Made by a program: the position numbers and the translations under genes. The notes beneath the pieces were generated by a model that was given only the letters and a program-made list of their open reading frames with translations, did no database searches and had not been told where the DNA came from. A DNA stretch of 64,000 bases from Sulfobacillus acidophilus DSM 10332 (lineage in GTDB: Bacteria; Bacillota; Sulfobacillia; Sulfobacillales; Sulfobacillaceae), in the NCBI GenBank assembly GCA_000237975.1, contig CP003179.1, positions 620,001-684,000 of the forward strand. Reading direction: 5' to 3'. Positions 633-10,317 of the stretch are shown here, piece after piece; within the stretch, counting starts at the first letter, position 1; every line of letters begins with the position of its first letter.

Positions 633-685
633 GTAGAGTAAGAGACAGGGCGCATCTCCGGGATGTTTCCCTGCCTCTCCTCTCC

Positions 686-719
686 GAACCGGACATGCAC
701 CTCTCGGCGCATCCGGCTC
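686..719 (-). ncRNA. Group II intron domain V
   Basis: Read on the minus strand, this 34-nt segment begins GAGCCGGATGCG, has a GAGA-type loop and ends CATGTCCGGTTC. That is the classic domain V hairpin: paired GAGCCGGATGCG / TGCATGTCCGGTTC arms with the catalytic AGC-type triad region. It sits about 50 nt before the inferred 3' splice site, leaving room for domain VI, and directly downstream of the maturase stop codon at 726, as expected. Confidence 0.9.
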
Positions 720-1645
720 TCCATTTCAGTGTTGCACAGCAATAGCAACATCACGATAGCGCGAAGTGAGAAGAGGTGGTGTCGGGTCATGGGTCAGGAT
801 ATAGGGATTCCGTGGCGGGTTGTGCCAGCGGAATTGGCCCTTGCGACTCGAAGCGAGCCGTCGAAGAGTAACCGTGCCCCATTGGCCATCCGGCCATCGC
901 CCCGTCACCACCCACGTTTTGGCCGCGCCGGGTTGCGGTGCGCGGACATGACGGGCGAGCTCCCGGGCGACGCCGCTTCGGTATTTGCGTGCCATCCAAC
1001 GAGCCAGCTTCCAGAACACGAGGTGGTCGATACGCCGATAGACCATGGCGGTATAATCGGTGTATTGGTAGAAGTTCGCCCAACCTGCCAACTGGTGATT
1101 GAGATGGTCGACCAGTTCAAGGTGATTACGAGAGTAATCCGTCGACAACTCCGCTACTAAGCGGTCGGCCAAGCGTCGATACCGCTCCCATGGAATCTGG
1201 GTGACGGGGCGTTTGCGACCAGCGGGTCCCCGCTTGCGGATGATGCGATAGCCAAGGAACTCGAACCCATCGTCCACATGGGTGATATGGGTTTTCTCCA
1301 TGTTGAGCGTGAGCTTCAACGTGTCTTCAAGAAAATTCCGGCAGGCTAACCGCACCGCTTCCGCGTGTTGGCGGGTTCCTTTGACGATGACCACAAAATC
1401 ATCCGCGTAACGGAAGTACGAGACCGCCGGACGCCATTGGCGCTGCTCGCGCAGCGCAATCGGCCGTTGGCGGGAAATCCCGTCATTCCACTGCCAGCGG
1501 TCGCGTTTGGCTTTCGTGCCACAATACTGCTGCTCCATCCACTGGTCGAACGCATGCAGCATGATATGGGACAGCAGTGGGGACTATAGTGGTCCCCAAA
1601 AACTAGACAATTTGGGAGGCCCTTAAGTGTTACACTGGACACACG

Positions 1646-7054: not shown

Positions 7055-7204
7055 CGTGTCTCTCGTCTCCTCTGAAAAATACTGGCCGCATTGGCCGCAT
7101 ACCATATACCGGGGTATCTATCATCCGTACCGCGATATCTCGATCGGTGACGGCGGGCCCTGCGGGAGCGGTCCACCCCCCTTTCCGGTGAAAAATAATC
7201 TTAG

Positions 7205-8443
7205 TTAACTGGCTTCGGGGGTGGCCGGTTCCACCGACACCCGATAGCCCAGGGCTTCGAGCCGCCGAATTTCCCGGCGGACCAGGGCCTGACGATCCCG
7301 CTGATCAAAATAGGTGGCGCCCAAATCTTCGTAGACAGCCCCCGGGATTCGCAGGATCGCATACACCGCGATCAAGATGTGGCGCCCGGTCGCCACAGCC
7401 GCACGTTGCTTACCGCGGCGTCCCGCGAGGCGGTGATACACCGCCCCCAGATAAGTCTTGGTCTTGCCCGCGGCGTGGCCGCTTTGGGTCAAGGCGGCCC
7501 GCAGCGCCTTACTGCCCTTGCGCGTGCGCGTCGGTCGCGCTTTCCCCGCACTTTCGTCCTGTCCGGGGCTGAACCCGGCCCAAGACACCAGGTGAGCGGC
7601 GGACGGAAACCGTTGCATATCGGTCCCGATCTCGGCGATAATGATCTCGGCCGTGCGACGCTCGACCCCGGGAATGGTTTGCAACCGGGTGAGGGCGTCG
7701 TCAAAATTTGCGAGACGGGTGGCGATTTCCTCGGAGAGCGCCGCGATCTGGCGGTCCAAAAAGGCGACATGCTGGAGCTGCACGCGCAGCATCAGGCGCT
7801 GATGGGCCGTCACCAAGCCGGTCAAGGCCTGGATCAGGGTGTCCCGGGAGGCGCGGATCCGGGGATCGGCCAAATCGGCTAAGGCCGCGGGGTCGGTCAC
7901 GCCGTCCGTCAAGGCAGCGAGAATCCGCTGGCCGCTGACGCCCAACACATCGCTGATGACGCTCCCGAGCTTGACATTGGCCCCTTCCAACACCTTTTGG
8001 ATGCGGTTGGCTTCCGTGGCGCGGGCTTGCTGCAGGCTCGTTCGGTAACGCACCAGCTCCCGCAGCTCCCGCTGCGGGCGTGGCGGGATATAGCTGGCCT
8101 TCAACGCGCCGATCCGGAGCAACCCGGCGATCCACTGCGAATCTTGCACGTCGGTCTTCCGCCCGGGCATGCCTTTGATGTGCTGGGGATTCACGACCAT
8201 CACGGCCTCAAAGGGATAGGCTTCCAACAGGTTCACGACCGGCTTCCAATACACGCCGGTTGCTTCCATGGCCACGTGCGTGACCCCACAGGATTGCAGC
8301 CAATCGGCTAACGCCAAGAGATCGGGCGTCAGGGTCCCAAACGACCGCGTCTCGCTGACCGTCGGCGTCAACACCGTGGCCACAATGACCTTCTTGTGGA
8401 CGTCCAACCCGGCGCCATGAGTCACGACAATATCTAAGTCCAT
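7205..8443 (-). CDS. IS110-family DEDD recombinase, intact
   Basis: 412 residues from the ATG at 8443 (MDLDIVV), just behind a GAGGTGAG site. The N-terminal RuvC-like DEDD domain has GLDVHKK (Asp), MEATGVYW (Glu) and GRKTDVQDSQWIA (Asp pair). A central coiled coil follows. The C-terminal Transposase_20 domain has LQTIPGVERRTAEIIIAEIG and FPSAAHLVSWAGFSPGQDESAGK with the candidate catalytic Ser. Length and domain order are complete for the family. IS110 recombinases cut and paste using a bridge RNA; the matching candidate is the structured upstream leader 8453-8650. The element ends are not defined, because there is no second copy in the window. Confidence 0.93.
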   Translation of the reverse strand: MDLDIVVTHGAGLDVHKKVIVATVLTPTVSETRSFGTLTPDLLALADWLQSCGVTHVAMEATGVYWKPVVNLLEAYPFEAVMVVNPQHIKGMPGRKTDVQDSQWIAGLLRIGALKASYIPPRPQRELRELVRYRTSLQQARATEANRIQKVLEGANVKLGSVISDVLGVSGQRILAALTDGVTDPAALADLADPRIRASRDTLIQALTGLVTAHQRLMLRVQLQHVAFLDRQIAALSEEIATRLANFDDALTRLQTIPGVERRTAEIIIAEIGTDMQRFPSAAHLVSWAGFSPGQDESAGKARPTRTRKGSKALRAALTQSGHAAGKTKTYLGAVYHRLAGRRGKQRAAVATGRHILIAVYAILRIPGAVYEDLGATYFDQRDRQALVRREIRRLEALGYRVSVEPATPEAS

Positions 8444-8452
8444 GCGTCTCAC

Positions 8453-8650
8453 CTCAGTTCATCAAATCCTCCGACAGCCTCGGAGCGTCAGAGAACTCTC
8501 CTCTGCGTGCTCACCTATCGTCGGCGCGAGCCGACGGCGGGGCAACAATCGGGGGTGCTCGACGAGGCCGGAATCCGTCTCCTTCGCGAGCTCGCAGCAT
8601 CAGAGGGAAGTCGATCTCGGCCGGAGGTTGTCTTCAGCATAGCGCGATCA
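8453..8650 (-). ncRNA. Candidate IS110 bridge RNA in the non-coding end upstream of the recombinase
   Basis: About 460 nt upstream of the recombinase start holds no gene, and the proximal 200 nt are full of hairpins. CTCCGA/TCGGAG is at 8481-8498, and CGTCGGC-GCGA-GCCGACG (7-bp stem, four-base loop) is at 8519-8536. GC-rich complementary pieces follow near 8590-8620. Known IS110-group elements encode the bridge RNA in exactly this position. Target- and donor-binding loops could not be assigned without the element ends. Confidence 0.5.
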
Positions 8651-8910
8651 CTCCCATTTTTCATTCCCGTGGGTGCCCCGAATCCGGGGCATGGGTGTCT
8701 CCTTCCCAGATTGTCCCATCGTGGTCGGTCAGGTTGTCTCGTCGGGTTCCTGCTCGCTGGAAATTTTTTTCGAGGCGCCAGGGGGCACCGTTTTACCAAT
8801 CTCTGGAGGTTCCATGCGAGTATCCCAGGTTTTTCAATCTCGCTGGGAGATCATACCGACCCTGACTTCATGCACCGACACCTGGATCTTAGGCGGATAG
8901 CCCCACGCCT
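8651..8910. other. Non-coding stretch between the IS110 element and IS3-A copy 2
   Basis: I see no credible gene. A hairpin GTGCCCCGAATCCGGGGCAT lies near 8672-8692. The distal part of the IS110 left end and old host DNA must both be in here. The stretch continues beyond IS3-A copy 2 at 10288, as the CCT duplication shows. Confidence 0.5.
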
Positions 8911-9073
8911 TAAGGTGGACCCCATTGTCAAGACAGATTTTTGACCCCTAAAGTGTGATACTGGCCTCCTTCCTTTGAGTGTCATCGAAACCATTACCCT
9001 CCGGTTTGGCGCGGGCTGTTGTCAGCCCGTCGGCAAACCGGAGGCCCAGCCCGTAGGGCTGTCTAGGAGGGAT

Positions 9074-9913
9074 TCAATCCCGGGAAACCCCACTCCCGGC
9101 GAGGGACGGGAGGGGCGTATACCAGGCCGCGGGTGGCGTGTAGCCTAAGGATTGATGCAGCCGGTGATAGTTATAGAACGTAAAGTATCGGCTCAAGCCT
9201 GATCGGGCTTCCCGTGGTGAACGGTAATCGTGTAGATAGACTTCTTCATATTTCACGCTGCGCCACAGCCGTTCCGTCAACACATTGTCCAACGCTCGCC
9301 CTTTACTGTCCATGCTGATTTGTACCTCCTTAGCCAACAACAAGGCCGTGTATTGGGGGCTGGTAAAATGGCTGCCTTGATCATGATTCCAAATGGTCGG
9401 AGTGGCGATGGACAACGCCCGCTCCGCGGCCGTGAGCACAAAGGGCAGTTCCAACGTTTCGGAGAGCTCCCACGCCACGACAAACCGGGAATACCAATCA
9501 ATAATGGCCACCAGGTAAAGCCAACCATGTACCAACCGGATATAGGTCACGTCAATCCCCCACACATGATTGGGGTACGCCGGCGTGACACCGTTCAATA
9601 AATACGGATACACCGGGTGCTGGGGATGGCGAGTGCTGGTCTGGGGGCCCGGCGCGAGCCCCCAGATCCCCATCTCCCGCATATAGCGCTGCACGCGTTT
9701 GCGGTTCACGGTGTAACCCTCACGGTTCAACTGAGCCGTTATTCGCCGGGATCCGTAAAACGGTCGATCGGTGTAAATTTCATCGATGCGATGCTTCAGC
9801 GCGATCTCCTCGGCATCCGGCCCGACGGGCCGGTAATAGAGGCTCGAGCGGTTGAGGCTTAACAACGCGGCTTGCGTCGTCAACGGCAGGGTATCCACTC
9901 CCCGATCCAGCAA
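9074..9913 (-). CDS. IS3-A OrfB (copy 2)
   Basis: Identical in sequence to the copy 1 OrfB (279 residues; DDE residues in DVTYIRL, NHDQGSHF and TERLWRSVKYEE). The open frame itself is undamaged. Its expression is compromised by the shortened A-run upstream. Confidence 0.93.
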   Translation of the reverse strand: MLDRGVDTLPLTTQAALLSLNRSSLYYRPVGPDAEEIALKHRIDEIYTDRPFYGSRRITAQLNREGYTVNRKRVQRYMREMGIWGLAPGPQTSTRHPQHPVYPYLLNGVTPAYPNHVWGIDVTYIRLVHGWLYLVAIIDWYSRFVVAWELSETLELPFVLTAAERALSIATPTIWNHDQGSHFTSPQYTALLLAKEVQISMDSKGRALDNVLTERLWRSVKYEEVYLHDYRSPREARSGLSRYFTFYNYHRLHQSLGYTPPAAWYTPLPSLAGSGVSRD

Positions 9914-9923
9914 GGTGATCCGT

Positions 9924-10226
9924 TCATCGCGGGTCAGGGTCGAGGCCAGATTTTTTTTTAAGCCACTCGACCTGGGTGGTCAGTTTCCCGATTTCCGCAT
10001 ACAGCTCGGTCAGCTGTTGTTGGTGGGCTTGGGCCTGTTGTTGGAGTACTTGGGACTCGGTAAACAACTGCGGAAAATTCTCGAGCGCCTGGCGCTTCCA
10101 GCGATGCAATTGACTGGGATGAATGCCGTATTCGGCAGCAATCTGGCTAACGGTTTTTTCTTCCTTGAGCATTTCGAGCACCACTTGGCTCTTGAAGGTA
10201 GCGGAATACCGCTTTTGTTTCGTCAT
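9924..10226 (-). CDS. IS3-A OrfA (copy 2, altered C-terminus)
   Basis: Same helix-turn-helix and coiled coil as copy 1, but the A9 run shifts the last residues to WLKKKSGLDPDPR, giving 100 residues. This is the only one of the four copies with A9. Confidence 0.9.
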   Translation of the reverse strand: MTKQKRYSATFKSQVVLEMLKEEKTVSQIAAEYGIHPSQLHRWKRQALENFPQLFTESQVLQQQAQAHQQQLTELYAEIGKLTTQVEWLKKKSGLDPDPR

Positions 10227-10317
10227 CGTGTGTCCAGTGTAACACTTAAGGGCCTCCCAAATTGTCTAGTTTTTGGGGACCACTATACCTGTCCATGGTA
10301 ATTTCGGGGCTTAAGAG

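What the first reader, a model, noticed from the sequence alone, without database searches (positions are those of the whole stretch)
8453..8650. Structured leader upstream of an intact IS110 recombinase: candidate bridge RNA
Seen: gene-free 460 nt with several perfect hairpins, including a 7-bp stem with a GCGA loop, directly upstream of the recombinase. Known: IS110-group elements make a bridge RNA from this region whose two loops pair with target and donor DNA. The recombinase has all DEDD residues and the Ser-containing domain, so this element may be active.
Basis: partly seen in the sequence, partly recalled or inferred. Interest (0 to 1): 0.6.

Follow-up and report, generated by a model that had tools for sequence, protein, structure and literature searches.

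The report
Bridge RNA targeting Shine-Dalgarno sites
The stretch in front of this jumping gene's recombinase encodes a guide (bridge) RNA whose two short guides match where the element sits and its own end, and in relatives the guides and these DNA sites have changed together, so natural selection has preserved the pairing.

Summary
Confirmed and extended. The recombinase (window 7205-8452, minus) is an intact IS110-family DEDD/Ser enzyme. An empty-site copy in the same genome fixes the element at 7067-8700. About 8468-8627 encodes a bridge RNA: single-sequence folding is no better than chance, but relatives show compensatory changes, and a model built from close relatives finds the RNA at the right place upstream of distant recombinases. 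The target guide (GAAGG+AG) equals the left flank and the donor guide (CAGAGG+AG) equals the right end. In 65 and 63 elements, own guides match perfectly 43 and 51 times, against about 4 after permutation. Differences from IS621: the core is AG, the guides are 5 nt plus core, no right-target or right-donor guide is detectable, and the two bases after the target guide copy the element's own left end (37/42). This lineage's guide spells a Shine-Dalgarno motif (AAAGGAG); the window copy sits at the ribosome-binding site of another IS's transposase gene and supplies a new AGGAG to it. The mechanism is known (2024); this is a variant. Expression and activity are untested.

The parts
7067..8700 (-). 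Complete IS110-group element (about 1.63 kb); AG core at both ends
   Evidence: Empty-site copy at G000:C1:578015-578992: joined flanks identical at 566 of 568 bases
7205..8452 (-). Intact IS110 DEDD recombinase (415 aa; probable ATG start at 8443)
   Evidence: PF01548, PF02371, NF033542 and IS621/ISCro4 matches; residues D17, E63, D101, D104, S301
8468..8627 (-). Bridge RNA body, closed by CCUCCG...CGGAGG; the exact 5' and 3' ends are inferred
   Evidence: Covariation in 14 relatives; covariance model R1 hits
8579..8585 (-). Left target guide: GAAGG + AG core
   Evidence: Equals the left flank at 8699-8705; covaries across relatives
8577..8578 (-). Dinucleotide AC after the target guide, identical to the first two bases of the element's left end ('left-side handshake')
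   Evidence: Identical in 37 of 42 elements; permuted mean 12.7, max 24
8498..8505 (-). Left donor guide: CAGAGG + AG core
   Evidence: Equals the right end at 7067-7074; covaries across relatives
8519..8537 (-).
   Evidence: its length varies among relatives while its base stays paired
8699..8705 (-). Left target (GAAGG + AG), pre-existing DNA
   Evidence: Present in the empty site
7067..7081 (-). Right end TATTTTTCAGAGGAG (left donor + AG core)
   Evidence: Boundary fixed by the empty site; motif TTC-N5-AG in relatives
8674..8691 (-). Hairpin TGCCCCGGATTCGGGGCA at the left-end tip, upstream of the bridge RNA body
   Evidence: Sequence; recurs with different stem sequences in relatives
8636..8664 (-). 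Possible promoter ATGAAA-N17-TATGCT inside the left end
   Evidence: 8 of 12 consensus matches; ATGAA in 39 of 44 elements but the full spacing in only 10 of 44; the stricter scan found none
7181..7198 (-). Second, decayed right-end-like sequence inside the element (TTATTTTTCACCGGAAAG)
   Evidence: Aligns with the right end of the four sibling copies; not used by this copy

Best explanation
The left end encodes an IS110-type bridge RNA, made on the minus strand from about 8627 to 8468. [quoted passage not shown] The enzyme then exchanges strands at the AG core, which inserts the circular element or excises it. The two bases after the target guide (AC) match the incoming left end and probably stabilise the recombined left junction. 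The target is read on one side only, as about 7 bp. In this lineage the guide spells a Shine-Dalgarno motif, so insertions land at AAGGAG sites, some of them ribosome-binding sites, and the right end's own AGGAG replaces the lost motif. Shown here: structure, guide/flank and guide/end identity and covariation, and the empty site. Inferred: transcription, pairing, strand exchange and activity.
For: Exact empty site. Five full copies plus a left-end relic in this genome. Covariation: 9 pairs with double changes, score 0.260 against 0.133 in shuffles and at most 0.093 when slid. Model R1 has matches immediately upstream of the recombinase in most held-out loci, down to about 43% protein identity (E from 3e-7 to 0.7), and none in four other IS110-type loci of this genome (L020, L022, L024, L030). 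Own target guide perfect in the left flank 43/65 (permuted mean 3.9, max 13); own donor guide perfect at the right end 51/63 (mean 3.7, max 11). Position -6 of the target guide matches at chance (12/59), so the guide is 5 nt plus core. Clade 1: A-guides go with A-targets 9/9, G-guides with G-targets 3/4, p = 0.014. Dinucleotide after the target guide equals the left-end start in 37/42.
Against: No RNA data; thermodynamic stability is not above shuffles. No right-target or right-donor guide could be found, although IS621 has both. Some copies mismatch their guide (L141, L145, L152, L158), which may be decay or guide mutation after insertion. No strong promoter.
Confidence: 0.92

Rival explanations
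1. The structured leader is a cis-acting mRNA element (attenuator or translational regulator of the recombinase) and the guide matches are incidental repeats of end sequences.
For: It lies directly upstream of the recombinase start; one hairpin set is close to the gene.
Against: The guides change together with external flanks and with the far right end across many elements; a regulator of translation would not follow target flanks.
Confidence: 0.03
2. The repeats are recombinase binding sites in DNA (subterminal repeats) rather than RNA guides.
For: The same short sequence recurs at the left tip, inside the left end and at the right end; ATGAA and TTC-N5-AG motifs are conserved.
Against: Protein binding sites would be constant for similar enzymes, but guides differ between close relatives together with the flanks; base-paired columns covary as RNA helices.
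Confidence: 0.03
3. It was a bridge RNA system but this copy is dead; the conservation is inherited.
For: The window copy is single and its sequence class has no second full copy; it has a decayed inner right end.
Against: Intact ORF and catalytic residues, matched guides and ends, and a near-identical empty site about 49 kb away suggesting a fairly recent insertion. Not exclusive with the best explanation, which does not need this copy to be active today.
Confidence: 0.3

Closest known systems
IS621 bridge RNA (IS110 group; Durrant 2024 PMC11208160, Hiraizumi 2024 PMC11208158)
   Same: Guide RNA in the left end upstream of a DEDD/Ser recombinase; target loop before donor loop; left guides include the core dinucleotide; insertion without extra duplication beyond the core
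   Different: Core AG not CT; guides 5 nt plus core (IS621 left guides 8-9 nt including core); no detectable right-target or right-donor guide; handshake-like match is after the left target guide and copies the right donor (IS621 handshake guides are next to RTG and RDG)
seekRNA of ISEc21 (IS110 type; Siddiquee 2024 PMC11187229)
   Same: RNA from the upstream non-coding region determines the target; natural reprogramming between relatives
   Different: ISEc21 seekRNA matches both strands of its target; here only one side is matched
IS900 of Mycobacterium avium (IS110 family)
   Same: From background knowledge (Doran 1997, not read here): inserts at ribosome-binding site/start codon signals. 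PMC8141618 reports preferential insertion motifs and mostly non-coding insertions
   Different: Its guide RNA was not compared here

Membership tests
IS110 family recombinase | DEDD RuvC-like domain plus Tnp domain with catalytic Ser | tested here: met
IS110 group (not IS1111) | Long non-coding left end upstream of the gene carries the RNA | tested here: met
   Left end about 250 bp upstream of the gene holds the RNA; right end roughly 20-140 bp
Bridge RNA | Conserved RNA secondary structure | tested here: met
Bridge RNA | Left target guide and left donor guide matching target and donor, covarying | tested here: met
Bridge RNA, IS621 type | Right target guide pairing with the right target | tested here: not met
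   Right target shows no preference and no complementarity signal over permutation in 51 elements
Bridge RNA, IS621 type | Right donor guide pairing with the right donor | tested here: inconclusive
   No signal in a gap-free scan; discontiguous pairing as in IS621 would be missed
Bridge RNA, IS621 type | Promoter formed at the RE-LE circle junction | tested here: inconclusive
   The best candidate lies inside the left end, 8/12 matches
Bridge RNA | RNA bound by recombinase and required for recombination | not testable with these tools
   Needs biochemistry

The most novel reading that the evidence does not exclude
A widespread branch of IS110 elements (AG core, many phyla) uses a one-sided bridge RNA: the target loop reads 5 nt + AG of the left target and then 2 nt of the element's own left end, that is the recombined left junction, with no right-target guide. 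One lineage has aimed this at Shine-Dalgarno motifs.
Probability: 0.5. Interest if true: 0.6.

Novelty: new variant of a known kind. Interest (0 to 1): 0.5.

Why it matters
It gives natural guide/target and guide/donor co-variation in a branch with a different core and a simpler code (7 bp, one-sided) than IS621, which makes the minimal rules of bridge recombination testable. Siddiquee et al. (PMC11187229) found target logos on one side only in many IS110-family elements and suspected wrong end annotation; here, with an end fixed by an empty site, one-sided recognition looks real. A guide aimed at Shine-Dalgarno motifs offers a way to find sites in any genome while leaving the downstream gene a replacement ribosome-binding motif.

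Tried and rejected
Single-sequence folding stability: no better than shuffles. Rfam: no bridge RNA family hit; only a CRISPR-repeat match below threshold on the other strand. Right-target and right-donor guides: scanned at fixed and free offsets, no signal above permutation. Insertion at start codons beyond what the motif itself gives: 8 of 16 insertions against 10 of 32 background motif sites, not a clear excess. Junction promoter: nothing strong. A short ATG ORF at the left-end tip was considered, but its frame is not conserved. The guide/flank scores use sites picked by best match, so only (where permuted guides get the same choice) is used as the test; the regexes miss part of the loci.

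Full report
What is there. The recombinase gene lies on the minus strand (7205-8452) and is an intact IS110-family enzyme: Pfam DEDD_Tnp_IS110 and Transposase_20, NCBIfam transpos_IS110, and IS621 and ISCro4 as relatives of solved structure. D17, E63, D101, D104 and S301 are present. The genome holds four sibling copies, 92-93% identical in DNA.

Ends. The region interrupted by the element occurs uninterrupted at G000:C1:578015-578992. Window flanks joined at a single AG match it at 566 of 568 bases. The element is therefore 7067-8700 with the AG core at both ends; AGGAGAC is shared at both junctions here, but the siblings and other relatives narrow the common part to AG. The DNA that was hit is the ribosome-binding region of an IS3-type orfA (HTH_Tnp_1): GGGAAGGAG-ACGAGAGACACG-ATG. 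After insertion the right end itself ends in AGAGGAG, so a purine-rich motif remains 12 nt before that ATG.

RNA structure. Aligned with 13 relatives it gives a consensus with 43 pairs. 96.5% of cells pair (35-45% when slid), nine pairs carry double changes, and the covariation score is 0.260 against 0.133 in shuffles. The count of pairs with double changes alone was reached by 62 of 500 shuffles, so the case rests on the covariation score, on the slid control and on the next test. A covariance model from these 14 sequences finds matches directly upstream of the recombinase, on the right strand, in most of the distant loci it had not seen (E-values from 3e-7 to 0.7, rough by the tool's own account). 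It finds none in four other IS110-type loci of this genome. In this genome it finds exactly the five copies plus one relic on contig 2.

Guides. After a conserved GAGCYCG stands the target guide, and after GAGCACG the donor guide; each is followed by AG. In the window the target guide GAAGGAG equals the left flank and the donor guide CAGAGGAG equals the right end. The siblings have AAAGGAG with AAAGGAG flanks and CACAGGAG with a CACAGGAG right end. Across relatives down to about 43% protein identity, guides differ strongly and follow their own flanks (GTCGCAAG, TGGCTCAG, TTTAGCAG, CACCCTAG and others). Giving permuted guides the same search region, perfect matches fall from 43/65 to 3.9 on average (max 13) for targets and from 51/63 to 3.7 (max 11) for donors. 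With one element per distinct guide the counts are 19/38 against 0.9 and 22/32 against 1.0. Position -6 of the target guide matches only 12/59, so the guide is 5 nt plus core. The relic on contig 2 carries the G-type guide and a GAAGGAG flank. Over this clade A-guides face A 9/9 and G-guides face G 3/4, p = 0.014 (a small table built by hand, not corrected for relatedness).

What differs from IS621. In IS621 both loops have right-hand guides and the core is CT (PMC11208160, PMC11208158). Here the right target has no base preference, and no complementarity to the 3' sides of the loops exceeds permutation. Eight copies of a more distant element in another genome also share only left-side sequence, GCTAA, though no empty site was checked there. 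Instead, the two bases after the target guide equal the first two bases of the element's left end in 37 of 42 elements (permuted mean 12.7, max 24), while they match the right target only 5 of 39 times. The signal persists with one element per 65% identity cluster. The natural reading is a handshake pairing in the recombined left junction. IS621 handshake guides lie on the other side of each loop. Recognition of the left junction for excision is an alternative reading that predicts the same match.

Shine-Dalgarno. The guide of this clade, and of L062 and L202 (47-49% identity), is AAAGGAG or close to it. Eight of 16 such insertions have a start codon with an ORF of at least 60 codons 3-12 nt downstream, against 10 of 32 for all such motifs in the window and 14% at random positions. 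So the sites are what the motif gives; no further preference is shown. IS900 is an older example of an IS110 element at translation start signals (background knowledge).

Limits. Everything is sequence evidence. RNA ends, promoter and activity are inferred. Newer work outside the open library could already describe this branch.

Noticed in passing
L160 (1-1100) and L153 (from about 2820): Target guides CACAGGAG and CAGAGGAG match the right-end sequence of sister elements, and these copies sit directly at such right ends: IS110 elements apparently targeting the ends of relatives, giving tandem arrays.
   Followed up: partly
L159:1479-1557: A 79-nt bridge RNA in which the target and donor halves are fused by a deletion between the two repeated AGGAGA guide segments.
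   Followed up: no
window 7072-7204: This copy has a right end about 115 bp longer than its siblings, with a decayed inner right-end motif; its donor guide fits only the outer one.
   Followed up: partly
LE of most relatives; window 8653-8664: ATGAA is conserved about 40 nt inside the left end (39 of 44 elements) and is the inverted repeat of the TTC(AT) before the right-end core; role unknown (recombinase site or -35 element).
   Followed up: partly
window 633-721 (-): Group II intron match (Rfam RF00029).
   Followed up: no
window 8911-10290 and copies at C1:1150758, 681987, 621872, 667315: IS3-family element (orfA/orfB) present in several near-identical copies; the window is very IS-rich.
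   Followed up: no
L191-L198: Eight near-identical copies of a 41%-related element whose core appears to be AA (GCTAA left, CGTTAA right end) rather than AG.
   Followed up: partly
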